Source: Candidatus Hodarchaeota archaeon
GTDB taxonomy: Archaea; Asgardarchaeota; Heimdallarchaeia; Hodarchaeales; Hodarchaeaceae
Assembly: GCA_016840305.1 (NCBI GenBank)
Contig: JAEOSP010000276.1
Location: 1 to 29,879 of the forward strand
DNA length: 29,879 bases
Reading direction: 5' to 3'
Positions 9,265 to 22,591 of this stretch are shown piece by piece; the first letter of the stretch is position 1; each line of letters starts with the position of its first letter. The notes beneath the pieces are model-generated. The model saw only the letters and a program-made list of their open reading frames with translations. It had not been told where the DNA came from and ran no database searches. Both the position numbers and the translations under genes were made by a program.

Positions 9265-9298
9265 ACCTTTTTTAGAGTGTATTTCGATCAAAACCCTC

Positions 9299-10429
9299 AT
9301 GTCTGAATGGGATTTGATCATTTACTCTGATGATCAGAAGAAAAATGTGAAACACAAGTTTAAACTTTCCACAAAAAAATTATCTGCTTCAGGCCAGCAT
9401 GGGAAAGCTACCATTCTTGTTGAAGAATCTGGGAAAGAATGGTTACTCAAAACTTTTGGGAATCTTATTGATTTTGAAGTGAAGGAAATTTATAATCTTG
9501 ATGTAGATATTAAGGATACACCTGAAAGAAGTCGTGATCGGCTACATCTTTGGCGTTTACTTAATGAGGTAACCGCATCACGTCTTGGGAGAAAGTTACA
9601 TTTAAATGTTCCAAAGACATATATAATATGCTCTCAAAAAATTTCTGACCTTAAACTCCTTCACACTACTGATTTAGAGCTAGGAGATATCATAGTTTTA
9701 GATGAAGAGGAAGGTGGGAAGGAAACTGCAGACGAATTCTATCACTTTGATGATCGGAAAGAAGGAGGAACTTCAACATCAAAACAATTTGAGGCATTAT
9801 TGGCCTCAAAAAGTGAAAGAAAGAACCCAACTGATGTTCTTGCTCTTCTCCAAGAAAAAATTCCTGATTCTATGAACCTAGATGAATATTTGGATGCAAA
9901 CCAAGACGATTTAGACGGTGTATTCGAAAAAATCGGGAATATCGATGATGGATTTTACCTTTTACCTTTTGATATTTGGTTAAATGATCCTGATAGGAAT
10001 GCTGGTAATTATCTTGTACAATTAGATAAGAATAAAATCGCCTCACGGATTTGGGGTATCGATTACGAAATGTGGGCCTTTGGTAGTGATATTTGGATGG
10101 AGGAGGATGACATTACCCAAGGAAGGAGTTATTTAACAGCAATAATTCATCCAAAAAGCCATGTTTTTGATCCCCGAGTTACTGAAACTTTTTATCGTAT
10201 TCGAATGTTAAAAGATGAAGAAATTCTACAGATGACACGTGCTCCAAGATTGCTTTGCAAATTTTTCGAGTATCATATTAATAAGGGTCATATACATTCA
10301 GATGAACGAATTGTACTCAAACAAGTTGAGGGAAATCTCGAAGATTTTCTTTTAGAATCGCGCCCTCGTTCAGACAAGTTATTCGAAACGATTACTCGTC
10401 AAATTGGTCTTCCAGAAGATTTTAAGTAA
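9299..10429 (+). CDS. HipA/PI-kinase-like protein
   Basis: A 376-residue protein with marks of a HipA- or phosphatidylinositol-kinase-like fold: a candidate ATP-anchoring lysine (WLLKTF, K51), a helix Glu (LNEVTASRLG, E90), a catalytic-loop-like LNDPDRNAGNYLV (D232, N237) and a metal-binding-like GIDYEMWAF (D255) in place of DFG. The middle (about 125-215) is an acidic, variable insertion. The kinase assignment rests on these motifs and their order; substrate (protein, lipid or nucleotide) is unknown. The frame extends upstream into metG, but the ATG at 9299, 34 bp after the metG stop, gives a more normal N-terminus. Its position after metG suggests co-transcription. HipA-type kinases are known to target translation factors, which would fit, but that link is speculative. 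Confidence 0.55.
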   Translation: MSEWDLIIYSDDQKKNVKHKFKLSTKKLSASGQHGKATILVEESGKEWLLKTFGNLIDFEVKEIYNLDVDIKDTPERSRDRLHLWRLLNEVTASRLGRKLHLNVPKTYIICSQKISDLKLLHTTDLELGDIIVLDEEEGGKETADEFYHFDDRKEGGTSTSKQFEALLASKSERKNPTDVLALLQEKIPDSMNLDEYLDANQDDLDGVFEKIGNIDDGFYLLPFDIWLNDPDRNAGNYLVQLDKNKIASRIWGIDYEMWAFGSDIWMEEDDITQGRSYLTAIIHPKSHVFDPRVTETFYRIRMLKDEEILQMTRAPRLLCKFFEYHINKGHIHSDERIVLKQVEGNLEDFLLESRPRSDKLFETITRQIGLPEDFK

Positions 10430-10455: not shown

Positions 10456-11664
10456 CTATTTATTATTTTTCATTATCAAGTTAAACGCTTTTTGCGCCAT
10501 CATCAATTCTTCGTTCGTGGGTATCAATAAAACTTCTACTTTGGAGTCTGATCTTGATATTGAGGTTCCCTCTTTCCTTGTTACGGCCTCGTTATTTTTC
10601 TCCGTATCTAAAAACGCTCCTAAAACTTCTAATCCATCCATTACCATTGCACGAAAGTGAGCTGACTTTTCTCCGATCCCAGCTGTAAAAACAATTGCAT
10701 CCAGTCCGCCTAATATAGTATAATACGCACCAACATACTTTTTGATACGATAAGATGCCATCTCAAGAGAAAGCAAAGCTTTTGGGTCACCTGATTTTGC
10801 ACTTGTTTCAACTTCTCGCATGTCCCTGAATTTCCCTGTTAATCCTAATAATCCACTTTCTTTATTCAAAACTTGATCTATTTGATCAACAGTCAGTTTT
10901 TTACTTCTCATCATAGCTAAGATTAGACCGGGATCAAGATCACCTGATCGAGTTCCCATGATTAATCCTTCAAGGGGTGTTAATCCCATGCTTGTATCTA
11001 TTGATTTTCCATCCTTTACAGCAGTAATAGAAGCACCATTTCCCAGATGAAGTACAATAAGCCTTCTAGAGTTCTTTATACCCAAAAAAGAGATTGCTCT
11101 CTGATATACATATTCGACTGATGTACCATGGAATCCATAACGACGAAATTTATTTTTGTTGTACCATTCCGTAGGAATTGCATATCGATAAGCGTAATCA
11201 GGAATGGTGTTATGAAAAGCTGTATCGAATACAGCGACATGCGGTACCTTTGGAAGTAATTTTCTACAAGCTTGGATTCCTTGTAAATTAGAAGGGTTAT
11301 GCAATGGAGCTAATACACTTAATTCCTTAATGATTGATTCTACTTCATCATTTATTATTATATCCTCCATAAATCTCTCTCCACCATGAACAACACGATG
11401 TACCACAGAATAAACATCATCGAGGGTACGAATAAGTGGTTCTTTAGAACTCATTAATTGTTCCAAAACTATTTCTAACGCTTCACTATGATCACTACAC
11501 TCAATTTCTTTTTTTCTCTCACGATTTTCTTTCTTATAAGAAATTAAGGATTTATTAAGTCCGATCCTTTCAACTCTTCCCAGAGTTAATAGTTTGAACC
11601 CTTCTGTTTCATATAAAGAATATTTTAAAGATGAAGAGCCAGAATTTATGGTTAAAATTAACAA
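10456..11664 (-). CDS. ackA: Acetate kinase (BMC operon)
   Basis: Acetate kinase, converting acetyl-phosphate and ADP to acetate and ATP; 402 residues, the standard family length. The N-terminus carries the family signature INSGSSSLKYS; HRVVHGG, VFDTAFHNT, RRYGFHGTS, LHLGNGAS and GTRSGDLDPG are all intact, so the active site is complete. Two TTG codons compete for the start. The first (11670) abuts a GAGGT Shine-Dalgarno with no spacing, while the second (11664) has six bases of spacing and gives the same N-terminal length as Methanosarcina Ack, so the second is chosen. It is the last gene of the BMC operon, where it would take acetyl-phosphate made by PduL. It has no encapsulation helix, so it may act in the cytosol or at the shell surface. 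Confidence 0.95.
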   Translation of the reverse strand: MLILTINSGSSSLKYSLYETEGFKLLTLGRVERIGLNKSLISYKKENRERKKEIECSDHSEALEIVLEQLMSSKEPLIRTLDDVYSVVHRVVHGGERFMEDIIINDEVESIIKELSVLAPLHNPSNLQGIQACRKLLPKVPHVAVFDTAFHNTIPDYAYRYAIPTEWYNKNKFRRYGFHGTSVEYVYQRAISFLGIKNSRRLIVLHLGNGASITAVKDGKSIDTSMGLTPLEGLIMGTRSGDLDPGLILAMMRSKKLTVDQIDQVLNKESGLLGLTGKFRDMREVETSAKSGDPKALLSLEMASYRIKKYVGAYYTILGGLDAIVFTAGIGEKSAHFRAMVMDGLEVLGAFLDTEKNNEAVTRKEGTSISRSDSKVEVLLIPTNEELMMAQKAFNLIMKNNK

Positions 11665-11674
11665 ATTCAAACCT

Positions 11675-13120
11675 CTAATTAGTGCCTGATTTTGAATCTG
11701 TGCCTTTCACAATTGCTATTGACGCAGAGGCTCCTATACGAGTTGCACCAGCTTTAATCATTTCTTCTGCTACTTCATGAGTTCTTATTCCGCCTGCAGC
11801 CTTTACTCCCATCTCAGGTCCTACAGTTTTTCGCATTAAAGCGATATCTTCCACTAATGCACCAGCAGTACTAAATCCCGTTGAAGTTTTTACGAAATCT
11901 GCACCTCCTAATTTTGCTAGAAGGCTACCTTTCACGATTTGTTCTTTAGTTAATAACGCAGTCTCCAATATTACTTTTACAATTGCCTGACCAGCAGCAG
12001 CAGTGACAACAGCCTCAATATCCTTTCTTACTAAATTATCATTCCCTGATTTAAGAGCTCCAACATTTATAACCATGTCAACTTCTTCTGCTCCATTAGC
12101 AATAGCATCTCGAGTTTCTATCGCCTTAACAGTAGGTGTTGTTGCTCCTAAAGGAAAACCTATTACTGTACAGACTTTTACAGGACTATTTTTCAAATAT
12201 TCAGCCGCTATAGAAACATTGGTCGGATTAACACATACAGATGCAAATTTGTACATATCTGCCTCCTCACACAGTTTAATTATTTCCTCTTCAGTTGCAT
12301 CTGCATGGAGGTTTGTATGGTCAATGGCAGATGCTATTTCCATGTCATAACCATTGATTCCAGACTCAGAAGTTATTCTTGAGGCTCCACCATTTACTAG
12401 TGCTTTAACTGCGACCTGAGATTTTCCGTGAATTGTAATATCCTTTCCAGCTGATCCTATTGTGAAGTTACTGTTAGTATGTGGAGATGATGAAAAAGAT
12501 TTATGATCCGTAAGATGAAATATATCTACCATTTCAATCCCCATTCCACTCAATTGCCCAATTATATCATTGATTCGATTTTTCATAACTGGAGGTATGT
12601 TTTCAGGTACAATTTGGCAACAATAGATAGAATCCTTAGCAGCAATCACAGGTTTTCCGTACATCAAACCAAACACCATTGTTATCGTTCCTAAAGTATC
12701 AGCATTCAATGTAGCTACCTTAGCAGCAGTATTTAGGGAAAGAATGGGAACATAGATAACATCACAATTCCCTAGAATGTCTTCAAAGTATTCTGCTGAA
12801 TATTCTGTAATAATTGTTCCACCATCAGATGCTCTTCTAATCTCTGGAATTCCAACGATTTTTATCGCAGCATGTGTCATAACAATATAAATTTTGGAAT
12901 GAGATTTGGAAATTTTCTCTATCTGTCGTAAAACTTCTGGAATCTCACGATTCCCTCCACAAAGAAGAATTAAGGCAGTACTCTTTAACGAGAGTGAGGT
13001 ATTATTTTTTTTTGTTGAATGTTGTGAGTTAACACTCCTTTGGGTCTGAGAAATCTGTTGATTCTGATTTAAACTTTTTAAAACTTCCTCGGTAATTTTT
13101 TGGATCATATCATTACTCAT
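11675..13120 (-). CDS. deoC: BMC flavoprotein-like domain fused to deoxyribose-phosphate aldolase (DeoC)
   Basis: A 481-residue three-part protein. Residues 1-20 ([15 protein letters not shown]) form an amphipathic helix typical of BMC encapsulation peptides, followed by a Ser/Gln/Asn linker to about 45. Residues about 46-205 are a Rossmann/flavoprotein-like domain seen in BMC loci. Residues about 260-475 are DeoC: IDHTNL, C296 in SVCVNP, D348 (EVDMVINVG), the Schiff-base lysine K411 (FVKTSTGF) and the second lysine K440 (VKAAGGIR). DeoC cleaves 2-deoxyribose-5-phosphate to glyceraldehyde-3-phosphate and acetaldehyde, the toxic aldehyde a BMC would contain. The start ATG overlaps the stop of the preceding EutN gene as TAATG. 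It is the probable signature enzyme of the compartment. The flavoprotein part may bind FMN or only serve structure. Confidence 0.93.
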
Positions 13121-13431
13121 TATTTTCCACCCTTTGTACTAAAACTTAAAGTAGATTGTTTTCCATTCTCTTCGATATAGTCAATAACCCCTATCACCAA
13201 TGCATCAACTGCTCCTTTACTGTCTTTCATTATACTTCGAATAGAATTACCTTCTTGTAGTATGAGAACGCAATCCCCAACCCCAGCTTTAGCAACATCG
13301 ATAGCAATTATTGATGAACCAATGAACCTTCCTTTTGTATCTATTGGACGAACTATTAATAATTTCCAATTTTGATGACTTTTTGTTTTAATTGGTGCAA
13401 CTATATTCCCAATTACCTGAGCGATGATTAT
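13120..13431 (-). CDS. BMC-P shell pentamer protein (EutN/CcmL), non-canonical start
   Basis: A 103-residue EutN/CcmL-family vertex protein, easily missed because it has no ATG, GTG or TTG start. The frame reads [15 protein letters not shown], then [25 protein letters not shown] and [12 protein letters not shown], matching the family from its first strand ('M.lakViG.vv.t.k'). The only plausible initiation site is ATA (13431-13429) or one of the following ATC codons; AAAGGAGG lies 8 bases upstream of the ATA, inside the end of the preceding BMC-P gene. The ATA overlaps that gene's TAA stop, and this gene's own stop overlaps the next ATG (TAATG). A -1 frameshift from the preceding gene is an alternative, though no slippery heptamer is seen. 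Confidence 0.85.
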
Positions 13432-13952
13432 TGTGATTGCCTCCTTTGTGAGGGGATTTTCGTTTGTTGACTCCTACTCTTCTTTCTAGCTGGTTTTTTT
13501 CGCGATTGTTTATCAGTCACCACACGTGGAATCGTAGTTTTAGGAGGTGTATCTTGGGGTTGTTTGGAACTTATTGCCTTCGAAATTGTCTTTTTTGGAG
13601 GTTTTGGTTGTATTTCACTTTGGGATTCCTCTACTGATATTGTAGGAGGAAGTTTTCTCTTTCTAGGCTTTTTCTTTGCGTGTTTTGCTACAAAATGCTC
13701 TTCAACAAAACCTACGATACATTCGTCTATTGGTACTAATTCTTTTGAAAAAACAATAGCTGCTTCTTTCTTACTTACAAGATAAACAATATCACCAGGG
13801 CCAGAGGTAAAGATGCCATCAGCAGCAACATATGGATTTCCATCTGGTTCTAAGTTGTCATCTAATCCTTGGACTATTAATAATCTAAGGGAATCAAGAC
13901 CAGGATCTTTTATCGTTGATACAACTTTTCCAATTACTTTTCCGAGTTTCAT
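13428..13952 (-). CDS. BMC-P shell pentamer protein (EutN/CcmL) with long basic tail
   Basis: A 174-residue protein. Residues 1-90 are a full EutN/CcmL pentamer domain (MKLGKVIGKVVSTIKDP, LRLLIVQGLD, NPYVAADGIFTSGPGD, IVGFVEEHF), which caps BMC vertices. Residues about 91-174 are a low-complexity tail rich in Lys, Arg, Pro, Ser and Gln (for example KKKPRKRK and KKPARKKSRS) with no recognisable domain. Family members are normally about 90-100 residues, so the tail nearly doubles the length. It could bind nucleic acid, acidic cargo or neighbouring shell units; none of this can be chosen from sequence. It is followed by a second EutN gene that overlaps its stop codon. Confidence 0.9.
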   Translation of the reverse strand: MKLGKVIGKVVSTIKDPGLDSLRLLIVQGLDDNLEPDGNPYVAADGIFTSGPGDIVYLVSKKEAAIVFSKELVPIDECIVGFVEEHFVAKHAKKKPRKRKLPPTISVEESQSEIQPKPPKKTISKAISSKQPQDTPPKTTIPRVVTDKQSRKKPARKKSRSQQTKIPSQRRQSQ

Positions 13953-13967
13953 ATGTATACACTGACC

Positions 13968-14441
13968 TTAGACACTTCGTAAGTACCTCATCTCAATATC
14001 AATAATCTTTTTTACCCTATTTTCATGTCTTCCCCCTCCAAAAGGTGTTTCTAGCCACTCCTTCACAATATTTTGGGCCACACCAGAACCAACAACTCTT
14101 GAGCCCAAGGTTAAGATATTAGAATTGTTATGCTCCCTTGCAGAATGCGCAGTAAACACGTTCGTGCATGGTGTCGATCGAATGCCTTTTATTTTATTTG
14201 CTACGATAGAGCTGGCTACTCCTGTACTATCAATAAGAATACCACGCGAATCAAGTGAAACAGCAACTGTTTGTGCCACTAACAATGCTATATCTGGATA
14301 ATCCACCGCATCTGTAGAATAGCAACCATAATCTGCTACTTCATAACCGAGTCCAATGATGTAATCCATAAGTTCATTCTTGAGGTGAAATCCCCCGTGA
14401 TCGGATCCAATGATTATTTTTCTCATATATTTTCTACTCAT
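13968..14441 (-). CDS. RpiB/LacAB-family sugar-phosphate isomerase
   Basis: A 157-residue RpiB/LacA/LacB-fold isomerase, expected to interconvert aldose and ketose phosphates (ribose-5-phosphate and ribulose-5-phosphate in RpiB). SDHGG, AREHNNSN and GGGRHENRVKKI are intact. The catalytic cysteine of E. coli RpiB (C66 in ICGTG) is replaced: the motif reads IDSTG, with Asp at that place, as I recall in LacA-type enzymes, and the alternative Glu of the actinobacterial type is also absent. The true substrate may therefore differ. A second ATG at 14426 gives the length and numbering of E. coli RpiB (Asp at 66); neither start has a clear Shine-Dalgarno. No encapsulation peptide is visible. RpiB together with DeoC is the mark of sugar-phosphate BMCs. 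Confidence 0.88.
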   Translation of the reverse strand: MSRKYMRKIIIGSDHGGFHLKNELMDYIIGLGYEVADYGCYSTDAVDYPDIALLVAQTVAVSLDSRGILIDSTGVASSIVANKIKGIRSTPCTNVFTAHSAREHNNSNILTLGSRVVGSGVAQNIVKEWLETPFGGGRHENRVKKIIDIEMRYLRSV

Positions 14442-14453
14442 TTTAACATGTTT

Positions 14454-14999
14454 TTACAGGAGGGTTTTTACGAGATCTGCATGAGGAGCGGGTAATACTG
14501 CTGTTGATAATACTAATCCTTCTCCTTTAACTCGATTGACACCTGCTTCGAGAGCAGAACGAACCGATCCAACTTCACCCGTGAAAACAACAAACGCTTT
14601 TCCGCCTATTGCTCTGCTTACACGAATTTCGATTAGCTTGACTTGGGCACTTTTAACAGCTTCATCAGCAGCCATAATCGCTGTAGGAGCTGAATAAGTC
14701 TCAATGATACCTATTGCTCCTATTTTATCAACAGAAGATGTAGCAGATAGGGCAGGAAAAACCTCGGGATGAACGTTCGGTATTACAATATAATTTACCA
14801 ATGTTTCCCCTGCAATTTCACTGCCTGCTGTCAATGAGCTTTTCACAGCTGCGACAGAACCTTGAATAATAATAAGATACTTACCAGGACATACAGGTGA
14901 AGCAAATAGCAATTTCACCTTGGCAGATTTTACTATTGTATCTGCACTTAATATTCCACGAGCTATTACATTTGTTTCAAGGACTCCAATCGCACGCAT
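14454..14999 (-). CDS. pduT: BMC-T trimeric shell protein, PduT-like with Fe-S pore cysteine
   Basis: A 181-residue tandem BMC-domain protein (domain 1 about 1-88, domain 2 about 92-181) that forms pseudohexameric trimers. It matches PduT along its length: AIGVLETN, ASPVCPGKYLI, IPNVHPEVFPALS, SSVDKIGAIGIIET and VLPAPH. C37 in the SPVCPGK loop is the residue that in PduT binds a [4Fe-4S] cluster at the trimer's central pore, so electron passage across the shell is likely conserved. AGAGGTAA six bases before the ATG supports the start. It lies between BMC-H and the isomerase; PduS is two genes upstream, in keeping with the PduS-PduT pairing known for Pdu compartments. Confidence 0.95.
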   Translation of the reverse strand: MRAIGVLETNVIARGILSADTIVKSAKVKLLFASPVCPGKYLIIIQGSVAAVKSSLTAGSEIAGETLVNYIVIPNVHPEVFPALSATSSVDKIGAIGIIETYSAPTAIMAADEAVKSAQVKLIEIRVSRAIGGKAFVVFTGEVGSVRSALEAGVNRVKGEGLVLSTAVLPAPHADLVKTLL

Positions 15000-15053
15000 T
15001 CAGTTTACCTCTATCTAAGTAGTAGTTGTAGATGTTCGTGCACCTACTTCTGT

Positions 15054-15332
15054 TTAAGCTTTCTTTGGAAGAATGCCTTCTACTTCATCGTGTGGTCTGG
15101 GAATTACATGTGCGCTTGTTAATTCGCCAACTTTCCTTGCTGCTACAGCACCAGCTTCTACAGCTGCTTTTACAGCTCCTACGTCTCCTCGTACCATCAC
15201 AGTAACAAATCCGCCGCCAATAACTTCTCTTCCTAAGAGTTGTACATTAGCTGCTTTCACCATTGCATCAGCTGCTTCAATAGAGGCAACTAATCCTTTC
15301 GTTTCTATTAATCCAAGTGCTTCTTTAGCCAT
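15054..15332 (-). CDS. BMC-H hexameric shell protein (PduA-like)
   Basis: A 92-residue single BMC-domain shell protein, the canonical length for PduA/PduJ-type hexamers. It has [20 protein letters not shown] (conserved edge Lys), the pore loop [17 protein letters not shown] and [11 protein letters not shown]. The pore motif has Gly-Gly-Gly instead of the common Gly-Ser-Gly. The frame is open back to 15386, inside the PduS gene, but the extra residues are a Lys/Asn-rich stretch from overlapping sequence; the ATG at 15332 matches the family start. It is probably the main facet tile of this compartment. Confidence 0.95.
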
Positions 15333-15351
15333 TTTTTTCACATTTTTTTTG

Positions 15352-16677
15352 TTATTTCGTTTTTTCGATGACAATTTCTTGTCCAATTTCGCGAACGATA
15401 CCGCTTATACTAGCATGAACCGTTGCACCAAGGGATCCATCAGGAATTTTGCCAATTAGATCCCCTGATTTTACATGATCACCTACTTCCACGACTGGAA
15501 GAGCGGGATCACCTATATGTTGTTTGAGAGGAATAGATACTTTGAGAATTTTCTTTGATTGAGATTTCAATGGACATTGATGATCATATTGTGTTAGATC
15601 TAGTCTGGAAGTAAGCCTTTTAATTGGTAATTTTCGATATTCTCTCTCTGGATGAATCGATAACACCTTTCTATGTTTAGGGTTCTTTATTCCTTCTTTA
15701 ATTAAATGAGATTTAACTTCTATCATCATTTTACATGGATCAAGCCCCATTGGACACCCATAATATGTACATGCACCACATGCTACGCATAGAAAGGATG
15801 AGGTCATATCATCAGATGTTTCCAAAGCTCCCCATGCGATACCGCGCATGACTTTATCTGGATGTAATTCATGACCCAGTAAAAATCTAGGACAGACTTC
15901 TGTACATAATTGACATCTTATACATGCTGCTTTTGTTACTACAACCTTTTTTGATGTTGTTTCTATTTTTGATTGAATAACAAAATGTGATTCTGGTAAA
16001 ACAATAATAGCTGATGTCAATTTAGTAATAGAATCTTTTGGTTTAGCAACATGACCCATCATAGGGCCATTTATTAATATTCTATAGTTGTCGATAGTAG
16101 ATCCCCCAACTGATTGAATAGCATCTTTTAATGATGTACCAATAGGAAATTCTAAGGTACACGGATTTTTTACTGCTCCAGTAATAGTTACATAACGAGA
16201 GATGACTGGTTTGCCTTCTGAAGCTTCATAAAGATTGATTAATGTGTATACGTTGTTTACAACTGCTCCAACATCGAGTGGAAGACCACTTTCAGGGATC
16301 AGTTTCCCTATTGTCTCATAAACTAACACAAATTCATCACCCGCAGGATACACATCATCCATTAAATGTAATTCTATCTGGTTTTCATTTTTAATTAAAT
16401 CAGTGAAGAGCTCCACGGCTTTCTGGTACTTTCTTTTAATGCCAATAATACCTCTCGTAGCGCTGGTTGCACGCATTCCTAATTTAAGTCCCTTTATCAC
16501 CTTTTCAGGTTGGTTTTCCATTAGAAGTTGATCTACTCGCAACAGAGGTTCACATTCTGCACCATTTGCGATGAATGTATCTACTTTTGCTGAAAGCTTT
16601 ACATGTGTTGGGAATCCAGCTCCACCTACTCCTACAACTCCTGATTTTCGTGCCAATTCAGCAATATTTAAACTCAC
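15352..16677 (-). CDS. pduS: PduS/RnfC-like Fe-S flavoprotein (BMC electron transfer)
   Basis: A 441-residue protein of the PduS/RnfC family. Residues about 13-40 hold the NADH/FMN-binding start [23 protein letters not shown] follows. Two four-cysteine clusters are seen at C252/255/258/262 ([12 protein letters not shown]) and C297/300/303/308 ([13 protein letters not shown]). The C-terminus (about 390-441) is a lipoyl-like hybrid domain ([14 protein letters not shown]). PduS reduces cobalamin in B12-dependent Pdu compartments, but no diol dehydratase is encoded here, so a general NADH-oxidising, electron-exporting role with BMC-T is more likely. The start is GTG with GAGGT 7 bases upstream. 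There is no obvious encapsulation helix at the N-terminus. Confidence 0.92.
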
Positions 16678-16702
16678 TTATTGAACCTCTTCCAAATTAG
16701 CG

Positions 16703-18130
16703 TCAAATAATTCTAAAAGCATCAACCAACACACATCTTCGCTGGCGAGTGAATGTTCTTGCTGATGTAATCCCCTCGCCAGTTGGACCTGCAATTGTCA
16801 TACTTGTAAAACCTTCTCCACCAAAACCGATTCCTGCTAAGGAAGGCGCGTTCTTAACAAATATTGTTGTTTCGATATTCTTTGCTACAAGACTCATATT
16901 ACCAACAGAGTCGCTCCACATCATTGCTGTATGTTTAAAACCATGTTCAGCTTTTTTTGCCTTCATTAGTGCTTCTTCTATAGTTTTCACGCGAACTATT
17001 GGTAGGATTGGCATCAACATTTCTGTAATAACAAAGGGGTGATTATCATCTGAAACTTCAGCGATAATTAGTCTAATCTCATCTCCAACATGAACACCAA
17101 TTCCCTCAAGAATTATTCGAGCATCCTTCCCAATAAAATCACGGTTTAGAATTGGATGTTTACCTTTCATTCCTTCGAAAACTAAGCTTTCTATCTGTTC
17201 AATTTGACTACCTGTGATTTCATATGCTCCATACTCAGCCATTTCTTGTTTTAATCTGTCAGTAATATTCTCGAAGGCAAATACTTCCTTTTCTACAATA
17301 CATACAATGTTATTATCAAAACTTGCTCCTTCTATAATCCCTCTTGCGGCTTTCCTTATATCTGCTGTATCATCTACAATTACTGGAGGATTACCAGGTC
17401 CAGCACATATCGATTTTTTGCCTGATTCCATAGCTGCCTTAACAACTGCCCCTCCTCCAGTTACAACTAAACAACGAATTTTTGGATGTGTCATTAAGGT
17501 CTGTGCAGATTCGATTGTTGGTGAAACTGTTGAAGTCAATACGTTTTCTGGACCACCAGCTTCAATTATTGCCCTGTTAAGTAATCGAACAGTTTCATTT
17601 GATGCACGCTTAGCCGATGGATGAGGGTTGAAGACAACACTATTACCCGCTGAAACTATCGATAACCCATTATTTATTACCGTAGCAGTTGGGTTTGTAG
17701 ATGGTGTAATGGATCCCATCACTCCATATGGGGCCATTTCAACTAGACTCAATCCCTTATCTCCAGTCCATGTATGAGGAGTTAAATCCTCAATTCCAGG
17801 AGTTTTTCGTGCGCACAATAAGTTTTTAGCTACTTTATCCTCTAATCTACCAAGACCAGTCTCTTGTATTGCTAATTCTGCTAGATATCGCGCATGTTTT
17901 ATAGCTGCTTCCCTCATTGACTGAATGATTTCTTTTCTATGTTCAAGTGAAAGATCCATTAATGCTCCTTGGCTAAATTCTGCAGCTTCGATGGCTTGAT
18001 CTATTGTTTGAAACACACCACCACCAGATGTTGTTGGCAGATCATTGACACCTGAATATACCTGATAGGCGCGTATTTTCTGTACAACTGTACTTACAAT
18101 CTTAGCAATCTGCTGTTCATCGTAGCTCAT
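16703..18130 (-). CDS. pduP: CoA-acylating aldehyde dehydrogenase (PduP/EutE type)
   Basis: A 475-residue aldehyde dehydrogenase that oxidises an aldehyde to acyl-CoA with NAD+. Residues 1-22 (EQQIAKIVSTVVQKIR) form the N-terminal encapsulation helix, followed by a short linker. The core has SITPSTNPTATVINN, TGGGAVVKAAMESGKK, CAGPGNPPVIVDD and the catalytic C277 in FDNNIVCIVEKE, the typical PduP/EutE pattern with no Glu general base. With DeoC in the same operon, acetaldehyde is the expected substrate. AGGTAATTAA precedes the ATG as Shine-Dalgarno. It lies between an EutN gene (49 bp gap) and PduS. Confidence 0.95.
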   Translation of the reverse strand: MSYDEQQIAKIVSTVVQKIRAYQVYSGVNDLPTTSGGGVFQTIDQAIEAAEFSQGALMDLSLEHRKEIIQSMREAAIKHARYLAELAIQETGLGRLEDKVAKNLLCARKTPGIEDLTPHTWTGDKGLSLVEMAPYGVMGSITPSTNPTATVINNGLSIVSAGNSVVFNPHPSAKRASNETVRLLNRAIIEAGGPENVLTSTVSPTIESAQTLMTHPKIRCLVVTGGGAVVKAAMESGKKSICAGPGNPPVIVDDTADIRKAARGIIEGASFDNNIVCIVEKEVFAFENITDRLKQEMAEYGAYEITGSQIEQIESLVFEGMKGKHPILNRDFIGKDARIILEGIGVHVGDEIRLIIAEVSDDNHPFVITEMLMPILPIVRVKTIEEALMKAKKAEHGFKHTAMMWSDSVGNMSLVAKNIETTIFVKNAPSLAGIGFGGEGFTSMTIAGPTGEGITSARTFTRQRRCVLVDAFRII

Positions 18131-18179
18131 TTAATTACCTTCATTTTAGATCATGATTTTTCATCAATAACTCCAAATT

Positions 18180-18470
18180 TTATTTTCTGTAAGTTTCTTT
18201 GCCATTAATATAGACAAAATCAATTATTGCTTGAATTGTAGCATCGCTAGGCTTATCTTTGGTCATTGCTGTTAATCGGGAAGAGCTCCCAGTAACAACC
18301 AATACAAGCTCACCATCACCAGCACCTACTGCATCAATGGCAACAAAAGGAGAACTTTCAGGTTTAAATCCAATCATATCCACTGGTTGCACAATGAGTA
18401 ATTTAAAACCCTTAATACTTTCATCTTTTTCAGTACTAACGACATTTCCAATAACTTTACAAATTTTCAT
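18180..18470 (-). CDS. BMC-P shell pentamer protein (EutN/CcmL)
   Basis: A 96-residue EutN/CcmL-family protein of normal length: MKICKVIGNVVSTEKDES, FKLLIVQPVD, SSPFVAIDAVGAGDGELVLVV and QAIIDFVYIN. It caps vertices of the polyhedral shell. A GTG at 18482 is in frame, but the ATG at 18470 is preferred because it matches the family start and has AGGTGA about 8 bases upstream; that AGGTGA includes part of the stop codon of the preceding flavoprotein gene. It is one of three pentamer genes in the operon. Confidence 0.94.
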   Translation of the reverse strand: MKICKVIGNVVSTEKDESIKGFKLLIVQPVDMIGFKPESSPFVAIDAVGAGDGELVLVVTGSSSRLTAMTKDKPSDATIQAIIDFVYINGKETYRK

Positions 18471-18482
18471 GGTAGAATTCAC

Positions 18483-19202
18483 CTAAACTTTAATTATTTT
18501 AATATTTAGATCCTTAGCTTTTTCTTGAGCCAAAGGTGTAATGATGGTTGAATTAGGGACGTGTAATTCTTTTGTTTTCTCTTTCAGAGATTCTAAATAA
18601 CCCTCAGTGATAAGATCAGGAATTTCTGGTGTGTGTTTGATAAATTGATCAGTTAAATCTCTCACATCCACCAATCTGAATCCTAGCTCTATCAAATCAG
18701 ATAATCGTTTATTCAATTCTTTGGTAATAGTACCTGAAGGCCCAAATTCAAAATTCAAATCTGATGGAGGAAACGGTGTAACGATGTAAACTGGTTTTTT
18801 AGCTAATATACCTTGAAGCAGTATATTCACAGTTGAATTAGAATCCTCTAAGCTGACTAATTTGGCAGCTATTTCGAAACTAAACCCACCAAAAATCATG
18901 TATTCAAGTTTTTCAAGAAATTTAAGACAGAAACTTCCATCAGAATTTCTTATTACGTCTAAAGTCGGAATGGTATTTACACGAGAACTGAATTCCAACG
19001 TATCATCTATTTCCTTTGTCGTCCAAATTAAAATCTTCAGATTACTTTGAGCTAATTGTATAAGAGAGTTGAATACTTCCTCAATCCCTTGTCCTATGTG
19101 TGTTAATATTCCTAGTATATTATATGGCCCTAGAGGTTTATTGTTCTGGAGTGCGTTCCTCACTTGTTGCATTACAAGTGATTCGAGCTTTTCTTCATCC
19201 AT
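18483..19202 (-). CDS. BMC-associated flavoprotein-like protein
   Basis: A 239-residue protein resembling the flavoprotein-like proteins of BMC loci and the N-terminal part of the DeoC fusion at 11675-13120. Residues 1-20 (EKLESLVMQQVRNALQNN) look like an encapsulation helix. The middle is a Rossmann-like alpha/beta fold (about 28-185). The C-terminus (STIITPLAQEKAKDLNIKII) carries the 'TPLA..A...I.I' ending common in BMC cargo proteins. No confident FMN-binding motif can be named, so cofactor binding is unproven. It is followed by an EutN gene whose ribosome-binding site overlaps its stop codon. Confidence 0.75.
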   Translation of the reverse strand: MDEEKLESLVMQQVRNALQNNKPLGPYNILGILTHIGQGIEEVFNSLIQLAQSNLKILIWTTKEIDDTLEFSSRVNTIPTLDVIRNSDGSFCLKFLEKLEYMIFGGFSFEIAAKLVSLEDSNSTVNILLQGILAKKPVYIVTPFPPSDLNFEFGPSGTITKELNKRLSDLIELGFRLVDVRDLTDQFIKHTPEIPDLITEGYLESLKEKTKELHVPNSTIITPLAQEKAKDLNIKIIKV

Positions 19203-19224
19203 TTTCTAGGAACCTTCCTCATTA

Positions 19225-19530
19225 TTATTTTGATGCTCTTTTGATACCAGCTGTAAGCCTAGTATGTTTGTTAAGCGTTTCAACAGTCTCTTTTGCTGGT
19301 CGGGGAATGGAAGTCACCGTTAAATCGCAGGATATTTTGCATGCTTGTTTTTTTGCCGATTCAATAGCCTCATTTACAGCAGCAATTGTACCTTCGATAA
19401 CTACTGTTACTAATCCACCTGAAACTCTTTCTAAAGATATCAACCTTACATTTGCAGATTTTAAGGCGGCATCTGCTGTAATAATTGCACTTGTTCTTCC
19501 CCTTGTTTCCAAAAAACCTAATGCTTCCAT
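19225..19530 (-). CDS. BMC-H hexameric shell protein, second copy
   Basis: A 101-residue BMC-domain protein: ALGFLETRGRTSAIITADAALKSANV, pore loop VSGGL, VTVVIEGTIAAV and TSIPRPAKETVE. It is clearly diverged from the PduA-like copy at 15054-15332, with a different pore loop (Ser-Gly-Gly) and a 15-residue basic tail (LTAGIKRASK). The ATG at 19530 is preferred over the in-frame GTG at 19539 because AGGTGA, which contains the TGA stop of the upstream gene, is placed correctly for it. Different pores suggest the two hexamers pass different metabolites. This gene is second in the operon. Confidence 0.93.
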   Translation of the reverse strand: MEALGFLETRGRTSAIITADAALKSANVRLISLERVSGGLVTVVIEGTIAAVNEAIESAKKQACKISCDLTVTSIPRPAKETVETLNKHTRLTAGIKRASK

Positions 19531-19535
19531 AATTT

Positions 19536-21392
19536 TCACCTAAAAGGAGAGTAACCTTCCTTAGATAAATCCGTTATTAGTGTTCCTAAATCTCCATTAT
19601 TCAAAGCTAGAGCATTTCCTTCATCCAAGTCCAAATGCATCTCAAGAGCATAATCAGGATGAACACGGACCATAACCTCATCAAGTATACCTGCTCTTTT
19701 ACCTGGAAATTTCACCGCAACTATTTGTCTATTTGAAACATTCAATCTTCTTGCATCATCTGGTGACATATGAAGATGTCTTGCAGCAAAAATTACTCCT
19801 TCCTTGAGCATTATTGCGCCCTTAGGTCCCATAAGATGAATTCCTGGAGTACCCTCCAAATGGCCTGATTGACGTGTAGGAGGATTAATTCCTAGTACAT
19901 ATCCATCACTACGTGAGATTTCCACTTGCGTTTTTTCTCTGAAAGGGCCAATAATTCTTACACCATGGAGGGCGCGTTTTGGGCCAACAATATCGATTGT
20001 TTCTTGACAAGCAAATTCTTTCGGTTGAGACAAATAATTAACTGAATGTAGATCGATTTCCTGTCCAAAGAGTTTTTCAAAATCGTTTTTCGATAGATGG
20101 ATGTGACGTGCAGACAAAGAAACTGGGATTAATCGAGAATTGGGAACTTTTGTGAGTTCCTGTTGTATAAGGTTTTTTACTAACTTGTCATTGTTGAATC
20201 CAGAGTTCCTTTCTTCAATTGGTTTGAACTCACATCCTAAGGGTCCGCAATACCTCCCAACATACTCAGCAGAAGGACGATAAATTACAGGTTTAACAGA
20301 GGGGGTTTCGGGATATTTCTCCTCTAAAATGTGCGCAGACCACCCAGCTGCTCTAGATGTTGTAAATATTGGAGTAAAAAGTTCAACAGGGATATTAAGA
20401 CTTGTATATACTGTAGCGCCGTATAGATCTACATTTGGATATATATTCCTATTTTTCAGTTTTTTAAATTCATCCTGAGTAATTTTAACCATCTTGTTGG
20501 TTGTCTCATACATCCATTGAGCTAATCCACCCCGAGTTTTTACCATTTTGGAGGCCATTTCCTTTAGTATCTTAGCTCTTGGATCCATTGTCTTATAAAC
20601 CGCATGACCCATCCCCATAACTCGTTTGCCACTCGAAAAACGATTTTTTACCCATTCTTCGACATTAGATAATTCTTTTATCTCTAAGAGGCTTTCGTAT
20701 ACGAGATGATTAGCCCCTCCATGATATTTTCCAGATAACGAACCAATGGCTCCGGAAATAGAGGCATATAGATCAGCCCCTGTAGAGGCAATAACTCTTG
20801 CAGTAAACGTTGAAGCATTGAATGAATGTTCAGCATGAAGAATTAGTGTAACATCAAATAGCCGAGCCTCTTCTTTCGTTGGTATTTTCCCATGAAGCAT
20901 ATATAGGAAATTTGCTGCATAACTAAGATCTTTATTGGGTGATAATGGTTCTTTATTATTCCTGATTCGTTCCCATGCGGTTACTATTATTGGTAAAAGG
21001 GCAATGATCCTAATAGCAATATTACGATCAGTTTCTCTTGTTTCAGTCCCAATCTCCGAATCATATCCAGCTAATAGGGCCAGTGATGACTGGAGTACAC
21101 TCATTGATGGTGTATTTTTTGGAGTTTTTTGGAGATGAGTAATCAATTCTGCAGGTAGCTCTTGATTTGATCTAATAGTAGTTTTAAATTTATTTAATTG
21201 ATCAATAGAGGCTAGGGTTCCAAAAAGAAGAAGGTATACAATTTCTTCGTAAGTAGAATTCTCTGCTAAATCCTTTATATCATAGCCTCGGATGAAAAGA
21301 TTTCCTTTCTCTCCTTCAATCAAGCAAATATTTGTATCCGCAACCTCAACACCACGAAGTCCTGTTGATTTGTGGCTATGTTCTTCAATCAT
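19536..21392 (-). CDS. Citrate synthase fused to PduL-type phosphotransacylase
   Basis: A 618-residue fusion and the first gene of the BMC operon. Residues about 10-378 are a complete citrate (or 2-methylcitrate) synthase: HGGANH (H229), MGHAVYK (H263), the NVD aspartate (D322), DPRAK and YRPSAEYVG. Residues about 420-605 are PduL: RHIHLS (H430, H432), RHLHMS (H539, H541), VRVHPDYALEMHLD (H578, H586) and DEGNA, so all probable zinc ligands are present. Between them, about 399-415 (NNDKLVKNLIQQELTKV) is an amphipathic helix resembling the encapsulation peptide usually at the PduL N-terminus. PduL turns acyl-CoA and phosphate into acyl-phosphate and CoA; citrate synthase condenses acetyl-CoA with oxaloacetate, also freeing CoA. 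Both halves regenerate CoA inside the shell. I know of no characterised protein of this architecture. Confidence 0.95.
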   Translation of the reverse strand: MIEEHSHKSTGLRGVEVADTNICLIEGEKGNLFIRGYDIKDLAENSTYEEIVYLLLFGTLASIDQLNKFKTTIRSNQELPAELITHLQKTPKNTPSMSVLQSSLALLAGYDSEIGTETRETDRNIAIRIIALLPIIVTAWERIRNNKEPLSPNKDLSYAANFLYMLHGKIPTKEEARLFDVTLILHAEHSFNASTFTARVIASTGADLYASISGAIGSLSGKYHGGANHLVYESLLEIKELSNVEEWVKNRFSSGKRVMGMGHAVYKTMDPRAKILKEMASKMVKTRGGLAQWMYETTNKMVKITQDEFKKLKNRNIYPNVDLYGATVYTSLNIPVELFTPIFTTSRAAGWSAHILEEKYPETPSVKPVIYRPSAEYVGRYCGPLGCEFKPIEERNSGFNNDKLVKNLIQQELTKVPNSRLIPVSLSARHIHLSKNDFEKLFGQEIDLHSVNYLSQPKEFACQETIDIVGPKRALHGVRIIGPFREKTQVEISRSDGYVLGINPPTRQSGHLEGTPGIHLMGPKGAIMLKEGVIFAARHLHMSPDDARRLNVSNRQIVAVKFPGKRAGILDEVMVRVHPDYALEMHLDLDEGNALALNNGDLGTLITDLSKEGYSPFR

Positions 21393-21457: not shown

Positions 21458-21625
21458 CAATTTTATGAATCGTCTGACGAATCATTTTGTCTATTTCACC
21501 TCAAACAACCTGAATGGTAATAGCCTTTTATCAAAGCAGTTATTTCGTAATATAAATAACCAAAAATCCTATATAATAGAAGTAAGCTTTTTCTAGAACG
21601 ATACAATTCGCAGAGGTTAATATTT

Positions 21626-22591
21626 TTGTTGATTAGAGGTTTTTCAGAACATACTAGCTACACTTGTGCTAGCTGTCACTCGAAATGCTGTGCAACAGAG
21701 TTTAATCTACCCCTTTGCGGAACAGAAAAACAGATCATTTCAAATCAATATCCAGAATATCAGTATTACTTCCAATCTACAGAAAACGGGGGTAATATAC
21801 TTCGTGGAGACTCATGTCCGTTCTTAACTAACGTGGGATACTGTCAACTTCATTCCTCATCACTAAAACCTATCACATGTCAAATTTATCCTTTAGTATT
21901 TTGGAGATTCAATAAGAAGGATACTCTAGTATCGATTCATCCTTGTAGGGGAAAGGGTTTTCAGTGGTACTCTACAAAAAAAGCAAATCTCACCAACTCC
22001 TACATTGAACAGCTTTTACTCAAGGCGAACAATTATTTCGATATATATTGGGGGGAAGAAATTGATAGAAACAATCCTTATGTAAATATTCCCACATTAC
22101 GAGTACAGAACCAAATAAAATTCTATCGGAAAACTTCTGAAAGGGAATTATTAGAGAAGATGGTGCGTAACATTACTCTTTCATCCTTTTCTCAGATTTT
22201 TCCCTCTGGATTTGAAAAATATATAGAGATAATAAAGGATGAAGAAGTGGGAACATTTCTGAATTCAGTTTTAAATTGGTTGATTTGGAGTCCTGTAGGG
22301 CTGCAATTATCTATCAGAAATGCTCAGTTAGTATTTTCCATTGCTGCACTTTGGCTAATTAAGCAAACTAAATTTGAACTAGGACTTGAAATTTCATCAT
22401 TAGACAATCCCAATTACATTAACCAATTATCTTCTTTTTACGCCAGATGTATTCTCCCTTCTTTTTGGTCCAATATCAGTACTCGTACGAATAACAAAGC
22501 CCTCATTTCTTTATCGAAGAAGGTAAACTTGGTGCTCAGAGGAGAACTCCCTCAAGAAGATTTATCCCAATTTTACACTTATTCTAACTGA
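21626..22591 (+). CDS. YkgJ-family cysteine-cluster protein
   Basis: A 321-residue protein with the Cys cluster of the YkgJ/UPF0153 family, which is thought to bind zinc or iron: C14-x2-C17-x3-C21-C22 near the N-terminus, then CPFL, GYCQLHSSSLKPITCQIYP and HPCRGKG. These Cys stretches occupy residues 14-120; the rest (about 125-321) is a helical region without recognised motifs, longer than in minimal YkgJ proteins. The start is TTG at 21626 with GAGGT nine bases upstream; the next TTG is also possible. It is divergent from the BMC operon across 233 bp. The exact role is unknown. Confidence 0.72.
   Translation: MLIRGFSEHTSYTCASCHSKCCATEFNLPLCGTEKQIISNQYPEYQYYFQSTENGGNILRGDSCPFLTNVGYCQLHSSSLKPITCQIYPLVFWRFNKKDTLVSIHPCRGKGFQWYSTKKANLTNSYIEQLLLKANNYFDIYWGEEIDRNNPYVNIPTLRVQNQIKFYRKTSERELLEKMVRNITLSSFSQIFPSGFEKYIEIIKDEEVGTFLNSVLNWLIWSPVGLQLSIRNAQLVFSIAALWLIKQTKFELGLEISSLDNPNYINQLSSFYARCILPSFWSNISTRTNNKALISLSKKVNLVLRGELPQEDLSQFYTYSN

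What the first reader, a model, noticed from the sequence alone, without database searches (positions are those of the whole stretch)
10456..21392. A complete microcompartment operon in an archaeal, probably Asgard, genome
Thirteen same-strand, tightly spaced genes encode every class of shell protein (two BMC-H, one BMC-T, three BMC-P) plus aldehyde dehydrogenase, PduL, acetate kinase, PduS, DeoC and an RpiB-family isomerase. BMCs are known almost entirely from bacteria. The flanks hold ubiquitin, E2, Arf-type GTPase, eS30, eL42 and an archaeal initiator tRNA, so the host is archaeal. Gene content matches the sugar-phosphate-utilising class, implying an organelle-like compartment for deoxyribose (DNA/nucleoside) breakdown. 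Horizontal acquisition from bacteria is the simplest origin.
Basis: partly seen in the sequence, partly recalled or inferred. Interest (0 to 1): 0.95.

Follow-up and report, generated by a model that had tools for sequence, protein, structure and literature searches.

The report
Protein-shelled microcompartment operon in Hodarchaeales archaea
Some archaea of the group proposed as the closest relatives of eukaryotes carry, at one fixed chromosomal place, a set of about 13 genes of the kind that builds a protein-shelled compartment in bacteria; it is predicted to break down deoxyribose from DNA, and because it holds a citrate synthase fused to the usual acetyl-transfer enzyme it likely feeds the products to the citric acid cycle as well as to acetate.

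Summary
The window has a 13-gene operon with 2 BMC-H, 1 BMC-T and 3 BMC-P shell genes. It is not a chimera: the operon lies between the same flanking genes in 8 other Asgard genomes. Five match gene for gene; G004, a 4.94 Mb single-contig chromosome, lacks acetate kinase; G051 has citrate synthase and PduL unfused; G052 is broken by a scaffold gap. BMC shell genes occur in 8 of 227 Asgard genomes, all in one order (8 of 14), and in 0 of 790 sampled from two other archaeal phyla.

(1) "PduL" is a citrate synthase–PduL fusion. (2) G004 has no acetate kinase at all, so the usual PduL–acetate kinase route cannot be completed there. (3) Relatives without the operon carry DeoC, or DeoC plus an aldehyde:ferredoxin oxidoreductase, at this locus; G001 and G050, about 95% identical in both flanks, differ by this swap.

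I read it as an SPU-type metabolosome with an added citrate exit. Encapsulation, substrate and citrate export are inferred.

The parts
19536..21392 (-). citrate synthase-PduL fusion (618 aa): CS 1-395, linker helix ~401-415, PduL 422-605
   Evidence: PF00285 1.1e-122, PF06130 5.7e-71; NF011652 248.9 bits over cut-off 209; CS aligned with 1IOM, PduL with 5CUO; linker helix from a low-confidence model
19225..19539 (-). BMC-H2 shell protein
   Evidence: PF00936 2.5e-22
18483..19202 (-). 239-aa protein, N-terminal helix-like start, conserved C-terminal (I/V)TPLA motif; function unknown
   Evidence: no Pfam hit; found in 7 of 7 archaeal orthologous loci examined
18180..18470 (-). BMC-P1 pentamer (start by orthologues)
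   Evidence: PF03319 9.2e-30 on the longer ORF 18180-18482; start as in L001-L004
16703..18130 (-). acylating aldehyde dehydrogenase (EutE/PduP type) with N-terminal encapsulation-like helix
   Evidence: NF011927 656.7 bits over cut-off 403; Cys region DNNIVC in window and 7 of 7 archaeal orthologues
15352..16677 (-). PduS/RnfC-like flavin and iron-sulphur protein
   Evidence: Complex1_51K, SLBB, Fer4, RnfC_N
15054..15332 (-). BMC-H1 hexamer (start by orthologues)
   Evidence: PF00936 3.4e-29; 85-95% identical in 7 orthologues
14454..14999 (-). BMC-T with CPGK cysteine
   Evidence: two PF00936 stretches; nearest solved 3NWG, 3PAC, 3N79 (PduT); CPGK in window and 7 of 7 archaeal orthologues
13968..14441 (-). 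RpiB-family isomerase
   Evidence: PF02502 1.1e-50; TIGR01120 158.9 bits over cut-off 138.65
13428..13952 (-). BMC-P2 with 86-aa Lys/Arg-rich tail
   Evidence: PF03319 9.6e-20; tail of 47-96 aa with 19-30 K+R in 8 of 8 archaeal copies, not in bacterial G005
13120..13431 (-). BMC-P3, non-ATG start (ATA/ATC)
   Evidence: PF03319 2.7e-19; 7 of 7 archaeal orthologues have ATG
11675..13120 (-). encapsulation-like helix + flavoprotein-like domain + DeoC (DERA)
   Evidence: TIGR00126 281.5 bits over cut-off 117.3; 62-66% identity in structural alignments to solved DERAs 5DBU, 6D33, 8QPS; PF02441 weak
10456..11670 (-). acetate kinase
   Evidence: PF00871 1.8e-138
21466..21484 (.). near-palindrome TGATTCGTCAGACGATTCA between operon and divergent gene; candidate operator
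   Evidence: 11-base core in 5 of 5 close loci, window included (4 exact, 1 with one mismatch); not found upstream at <=1 mismatch in the more distant loci scanned
21626..22591 (+). Cys-rich flanking gene, also adjacent to the alternative DeoC-AOR cassette
   Evidence: no Pfam hit over cut-off; next to the operon or cassette in the loci compared
9236..10429 (+). flanking gene of unknown family marking the other border
   Evidence: no Pfam hit; syntenic with and without the operon

Best explanation
The operon encodes the shell proteins and enzymes of an SPU-type (sugar-phosphate-utilising) microcompartment in Hodarchaeales archaea, predicted to cleave 2-deoxyribose 5-phosphate to acetaldehyde inside the shell and oxidise it to acetyl-CoA, with a citrate synthase-PduL fusion that would give this acetyl-CoA two exits, citrate and acetyl phosphate, each freeing CoA. 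Steps: DeoC makes glyceraldehyde 3-phosphate and acetaldehyde (family assignment shown; activity inferred). AldDH makes acetyl-CoA and NADH (inferred). PduL makes acetyl phosphate, which acetate kinase turns into ATP and acetate; the fused citrate synthase instead condenses acetyl-CoA with imported oxaloacetate to citrate for the TCA cycle (inferred). NADH would be reoxidised by PduS, passing electrons through an iron-sulphur cluster on the CPGK cysteine of BMC-T (inferred from the PduT precedent, recalled). At the same locus, between the same outer genes, relatives have DeoC plus aldehyde:ferredoxin oxidoreductase (shown), which I read as another way of disposing of the same acetaldehyde.
For: Shell set and enzymes. 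The two enzymes shared by all SPU subtypes are present (definition: PMC8217296 passages). Synteny in 7 genomes, five of them gene for gene, flanks shared by 8. CS-PduL fusions are 33 of the 120 listed proteins (189 found, 69 not listed); 11 of the 33 bear an organism name, all Hodarchaeales/Hodarchaeota/Heimdallarchaeota. The fused CS groups (100/99) with a CS from G005, a bin with its own BMC locus, whose CS carries a ~110-aa tail ending in the TPLA motif of the operon's 239-aa protein, and not with the host's stand-alone CS. In G051 CS and PduL are separate neighbours and PduL has its own N-terminal extension. Acetate kinase occurs in 6 of 14 genomes of the order, each time only in this operon; the single-contig G004 chromosome has the operon but none. 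PF00330 (aconitase family) matches in 13 of 14. DeoC-AOR cassette at the locus in G047 and G050, AOR in G053 up to a contig end, lone DeoC in G046. G001 and G050: 95.1% and 94.4% identical flanks, 12.2 kb operon allele against 4.0 kb cassette allele.
Against: No biochemistry or microscopy. The linker standing where PduL's encapsulation helix should be is not significantly amphipathic (35% of shuffles reach it), nor is G051's PduL N-terminus (40%) nor the first helix-like stretch of G005's CS tail (52%; the second 6%); only the AldDH and DeoC helices pass clearly. The AlphaFold model is poor over PduL (pLDDT under 50 from residue 398). TIGR01800 for the CS is just under cut-off (410.9 against 421.3), so acetyl- versus propionyl-CoA is open. 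In four carriers no other full-length CS was found, so the fusion might be the housekeeping enzyme. PduL in G004 could still free CoA if acetyl phosphate is used otherwise. No triose-phosphate isomerase in the operon, though the first SPU loci had one. Most genomes compared are MAGs. G005's CS lies on a 3.5 kb, 1.2x contig, so its binning is unsure.
Confidence: 0.65

Rival explanations
1. The compartment is an ordinary SPU metabolosome with PduL as the only lumenal exit; the citrate synthase half sits outside, or only tethers PduL, and works for the general TCA cycle.
For: Linker not significantly amphipathic. In G002, G003, G048 and G049 no other full-length citrate synthase was found, so the fusion could be the housekeeping enzyme.
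Against: G001 and G004 have a separate 384-aa CS yet keep the fusion in the operon; the fused CS is related to a tailed CS in a bin with a BMC locus; CS is the first gene of the operon even where unfused.
Confidence: 0.22
2. The substrate is not deoxyribose 5-phosphate but another source of acetaldehyde or a ribose phosphate.
For: RpiB acts on pentose phosphates and has no clear place in deoxyribose breakdown (family knowledge); substrate cannot be read from sequence.
Against: DeoC domain is closest to solved deoxyribose-phosphate aldolases (8QPS, 5DBU, 6D33); DeoC is also present in three of the four operon-less loci compared (the fourth, G053, is cut by a contig end); no ethanolamine or propanediol signature enzymes among the 13 genes.
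Confidence: 0.2
3. A bacterial contig was joined to an archaeal one.
For: BMC loci are otherwise described from bacteria.
Against: Same operon and flanks in other genomes, among them contigs of 4.94 Mb (G004) and 3.16 Mb (G051); matching codon usage.
Confidence: 0.01
4. The operon-less relatives never had the operon, and the locus is a hot spot that received the operon and the AOR cassette independently.
For: The MetG tree puts three operon-less genomes (G046, G047, G053) together at midpoint rooting; the DeoC proteins of the AOR cassettes are a different lineage.
Against: G050 is sister to carrier G001 (100/99) inside a carrier clade, so at least there one allele replaced the other; G046 holds, between the two flank genes, a lone DeoC 80% identical to the operon's.
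Confidence: 0.3

Closest known systems
SPU (sugar-phosphate-utilising) metabolosome, Axen 2014 (PMC4207490) and Sutter 2021 (PMC8217296)
   Same: DeoC and RpiB enzymes, AldDH, PduL, PduS, shell genes (passages)
   Different: archaeal host; PduL fused behind a citrate synthase; DeoC carries a flavoprotein-like domain; basic tail on BMC-P2; no triose-phosphate isomerase in the operon; BMC-T closest to PduT, whereas several SPU subtypes have BMC-Tdp
BMC locus of bacterium G005 (L125; the record of its contig L005 is titled Myxococcales bacterium)
   Same: DeoC-P-P-T-PduS-AldDH-P order; a tailed citrate synthase elsewhere in the same bin
   Different: CS not fused to PduL; DeoC without the flavoprotein-like part; no basic tail on BMC-P2; TIM-like and class II aldolase-like ORFs, by eye
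Bacterial acetate kinase-PduL fusions
   Same: PduL fused to an enzyme of the acetyl branch (85 of the 120 listed proteins by their Pfam columns)
   Different: partner is acetate kinase, not citrate synthase
Aldehyde:ferredoxin oxidoreductase (AOR)
   Same: family of aldehyde oxidation, beside DeoC at the same locus
   Different: no shell, no CoA step; uses ferredoxin (family knowledge)

Membership tests
Bacterial microcompartment (BMC) | BMC-H/BMC-T (PF00936) and BMC-P (PF03319) shell genes together | tested here: met
Bacterial microcompartment (BMC) | encapsulation peptides on cargo | tested here: inconclusive
   amphipathicity reached by shuffles: AldDH 0.7%, DeoC 0%, 239-aa protein 6%, CS-PduL linker 35%
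Bacterial microcompartment (BMC) | polyhedral bodies form | not testable with these tools
   needs microscopy
SPU metabolosome (2021 definition) | pfam01791 aldolase and pfam02502 isomerase in the locus | tested here: met
   definition read
SPU metabolosome (2021 definition) | assignment to one of the seven subtypes | not tested
   subtype models not available
SPU as first named in 2014 | triose-phosphate isomerase in the locus | tested here: not met
   no TIM family among the 13 genes; the 2021 passages do not list it as shared by all subtypes, so I file it under the 2021 definition only
PduT-type BMC-T | NCBIfam TIGR02526 cut-off | tested here: not met
   127.6 bits against 250.3; so it resembles PduT but is not filed as PduT
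PduT-type BMC-T | pore cysteine that holds a [4Fe-4S] cluster | tested here: inconclusive
   CPGK cysteine aligned with 3PAC and present in 8 of 8 archaeal copies; its role in PduT is recalled; cluster untested
Citrate synthase (type II) | PF00285 and conserved catalytic His/His/Asp regions | tested here: met
   residue roles recalled; TIGR01800 just below cut-off
PduL phosphate acyltransferase | NF011652 and PF06130 over cut-off, His motifs as in 5CUO | tested here: met

The most novel reading that the evidence does not exclude
An archaeal metabolosome, in the lineage proposed as sister to eukaryotes, that exports its acetyl units as citrate: a protein organelle that feeds DNA-derived carbon straight into the TCA cycle, and that recombines in and out of the genome as a single allele in exchange for a DeoC-AOR cassette.
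Probability: 0.5. Interest if true: 0.93.

Novelty: new variant of a known kind. Interest (0 to 1): 0.86.

Why it matters
Microcompartments are described as bacterial: one 2019 survey states that they are found only in bacteria, not archaea (PMC6620236, passages), and the held main text of the 2021 catalogue has no match for 'archaea' (PMC8217296; its supplements were not readable here). A conserved set in Hodarchaeales would put protein organelles in the archaea proposed as sister to eukaryotes (PMC10307638 passages). The citrate synthase-PduL fusion would be a second exit for acetyl-CoA; the standard model regenerates cofactors with a phosphotransacylase (PMC4207490 passages). The allele swap with AOR gives a natural experiment: two closely related genomes, same locus, two ways to dispose of what should be the same aldehyde. 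My ten open-literature searches showed no report of it in the rows listed; several lists were capped (20 of 100; 20 of 235; 20 of 558), and subscription papers and preprints were not searched.

Tried and rejected
Chimeric contig: rejected by synteny in independent assemblies and codon usage. Derivation of the fused CS from the host's own CS: rejected, the stand-alone CSs of G001 and G004 sit on a separate long branch. G052 as a degraded operon: rejected, its two ends lie about 0.3 Mb apart in one scaffold and the CS end breaks at a run of N. AlphaFold of the fusion gave a usable CS only, and of flav-DeoC a moderate model; Foldseek showed only DeoC-type matches in the 50 rows printed; a PDB sequence search with the flavoprotein-like part found nothing. 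A second AldDH clade with Asgard-labelled members (P0153, P0156) was sought through P0155 in 222 Asgard genomes: only 7 genomes matched, each with its operon AldDH at 60-62%, so the context of that clade is unknown. A search for other tailed citrate synthases in G005's phylum covered only 5 genomes; G005 alone matched over the tail. Amphipathicity of the CS-PduL linker failed. Shared operator in the distant or AOR loci: not found.
Full report
WHAT IS THERE. Thirteen minus-strand genes occupy 10456-21392. In order of transcription: citrate synthase-PduL fusion, BMC-H2, a 239-aa protein without a Pfam family, BMC-P1, acylating aldehyde dehydrogenase, PduS, BMC-H1, BMC-T, RpiB, BMC-P2, BMC-P3, flavoprotein-like-DeoC fusion, acetate kinase. 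BMC-P3 has no ATG; the frame opens at ATA/ATC after a GGAGG, where 7 of 7 archaeal orthologues have ATG.

IT IS REAL AND ARCHAEAL. A scan of named genomes gave the fusion in L001 (Heimdallarchaeota B3_Heim), L002 and L003 (Hodarchaeota YT2_004, YT5_056) and L004 (CP070695.1, 4.94 Mb, titled Heimdallarchaeota chromosome). The operon, between the same flanking genes, is found in 7 held genomes: G001, G002, G003, G048 and G049 gene for gene; G051 with CS and PduL as two genes; G004 without acetate kinase. An eighth, G052, has both ends of the operon but a run of N and a scaffold join between them. The window's methionyl-tRNA synthetase is at most 76% identical to those of the 11 genomes compared, so it is a further lineage. 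PF00936 occurs in 8 of 227 genomes of the phylum, PduL in the same 8 of the 14 genomes of the order, and PF00936 in 0 of 392 and 0 of 398 genomes drawn from the phyla of a Methanoperedens and a Nitrososphaera genome. Other archaeal phyla were not searched. GC3 and codon usage of the operon match the flanks.

TWO FUSIONS. A search that by its rules takes only proteins of 0.55-1.75 times the query length returned 189 proteins; of the 120 listed, the first 33 are citrate synthase-PduL fusions. Eleven of the 33 carry an organism name: Hodarchaeales, Hodarchaeota or Heimdallarchaeota. Of the other 87 listed, 85 are acetate kinase-PduL fusions, those with organism names all bacterial. In G051 CS and PduL are separate neighbours and PduL begins with its own N-terminal extension, so the linker of the fusion stands in the place of PduL's N-terminus. 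The flavoprotein-like part was found in 39 proteins, 47-91% identical, 37 of them with a DeoC domain listed, none with an organism name; bacterium G005 has DeoC with an N-terminal helix but without that part.

WHERE THE CITRATE SYNTHASE COMES FROM. In a tree of 32 rows the operon CSs group (100/99) with one bacterial CS, L005, from bin G005, and away from the stand-alone CSs of G001 and G004. G005 has a BMC locus with the DeoC, BMC-P, BMC-P, BMC-T, PduS, AldDH, BMC-P order, and its L005 CS has a ~110-aa tail with helix-like stretches and an end (SIVTPLAKDKANRLGIKLVFRN) like that of the operon's 239-aa protein. That hints at citrate synthase as a cargo outside the archaea too, without fusion. 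Limits: that contig is 3.5 kb at 1.2x, its tail helices score 52% and 6% in the shuffle test, and only 5 genomes of its phylum could be searched.

HOW IT LIKELY WORKS. DeoC, 62-66% identical over structural alignments to several solved deoxyribose-phosphate aldolases, would release acetaldehyde; AldDH would make acetyl-CoA and NADH. In the known model PduL returns CoA and acetate kinase makes ATP. Here citrate synthase offers a second, more strongly downhill way to free CoA (thermodynamics recalled). Three facts favour a real second exit. The fusion is kept where a separate CS exists (G001, G004). The single-contig G004 chromosome has the operon but no acetate kinase, and acetate kinase in this order (6 of 14) is found only in the operon; PduL there could still free CoA if acetyl phosphate has another use, and ADP-forming acetyl-CoA synthetase was not looked for. 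PF00330 matches are in 13 of 14 genomes, and a published reconstruction predicts a complete TCA cycle in the three ancestors it modelled (PMC10307638 passages). Against it, in G002, G003, G048 and G049 the fusion is the only full-length CS found, so it could be housekeeping. BMC-T carries the CPGK cysteine also seen in PduT 3PAC in 8 of 8 archaeal copies, which with PduS suggests an electron path out of the shell. None of this is shown biochemically. The linker failed the amphipathicity test, so lumenal placement of the fusion rests on analogy.

THE SAME LOCUS WITHOUT THE OPERON. In the four operon-less members of the order that have the flank gene, the locus carries related functions. G047 and G050 have DeoC, aldehyde:ferredoxin oxidoreductase and the Cys-rich flank gene as a co-directional cassette: there the flank gene is inverted and next to the other flank gene, and the two enzymes lie on its far side. 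G053 has the oxidoreductase and flank gene up to a contig end. G046 has a lone DeoC, 80% identical to the operon's, between the two flank genes, as the operon is. G054 and G055 gave no flank-gene match. G050 and the operon carrier G001 are sisters (100/99). Their DNA is 95.1% identical over 6.8 kb on one side and 94.4% over 1.8 kb on the other; between these, G001 has 12.2 kb (operon and Cys-rich gene) and G050 4.0 kb (cassette and a Cys-rich gene only 43% identical). G050's stretch has no N. So one allele was exchanged for the other recently. The Cys-rich gene varies fast in general: 35-41% between the two carrier sub-clades as well. I read the exchange as two interchangeable ways of oxidising acetaldehyde from deoxyribose; it is the best functional evidence in the data, though still inference.

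ORIGIN. The 28-row AldDH clade that holds the window (SH-aLRT 100; one member labelled Odinarchaeota) lies next to two unnamed rows, then a six-row clade with two Asgard-labelled members, then rows many of which are labelled Myxococcota; the tree is midpoint-rooted and 'quick'. Operon and MetG trees agree in splitting the carriers into the same two sub-clades, as far as rows are shared, consistent with descent within the order. Acquisition from bacteria remains the simplest account; donor, direction and date are open.

PRINT. PMC4207490 (passages) named SPU from 2014 loci; PMC8217296 (abstract and passages) extended it to 26 bacterial phyla and seven subtypes sharing two enzymes. Searches for microcompartments with Asgard, Heimdall- or Hodarchaeal names showed no report in the rows listed; I read passages of five of those papers and found only references or general mentions. 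Citrate synthase with PduL and microcompartment found no paper, and with encapsulation peptide one review, seen in the listing only. Only an open-licence library was searched.

Noticed in passing
window 13428-13952; copies in L001-L004, L127, L129, L130: BMC-P2 has a 47-96 aa Lys/Arg-rich C-terminal tail (19-30 K+R) in 8 of 8 archaeal copies, absent from the G005 bacterial copy; it could bind nucleic acid or anchor the compartment.
   Followed up: partly
window 21466-21484: Near-perfect palindrome TGATTCGTCAGACGATTCA between the operon and the divergent Cys-rich gene, its core kept in 5 of 5 close loci: a candidate operator.
   Followed up: partly
window 13425-13431: BMC-P3 appears to start at ATA or ATC, overlapping the previous stop codon, where 7 of 7 archaeal orthologues have ATG.
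   Followed up: partly
P0153, P0154, P0156, P0157 (and P0155): AldDHs with encapsulation-like N-termini, two labelled Heimdallarchaeota or Hodarchaeales, about 60% identical to the operon's; their genomes are not among those searched, so a second archaeal BMC locus is possible.
   Followed up: partly
L170:7487-8188: G046 has a lone DeoC, 80% identical to the operon's DeoC, between the two flank genes: remnant or seed of the operon.
   Followed up: partly
window 21626-22591: Cys-rich gene of unknown family next to both the BMC operon and the DeoC-AOR cassette and exchanged along with them in G050; 36-44% identity between carriers and the three cassette genomes, but also 35-41% between the two carrier sub-clades.
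   Followed up: partly
L005:543-2063: Bacterial citrate synthase with a ~110-aa tail ending in a motif shared with the operon's 239-aa protein, in a bin that holds a BMC locus: a possible citrate synthase cargo in bacteria.
   Followed up: partly
P0052, P0034: Other PduL fusions in the list by Pfam column: flavoprotein-PduL (PF02441) and PduL with PF01841.
   Followed up: no
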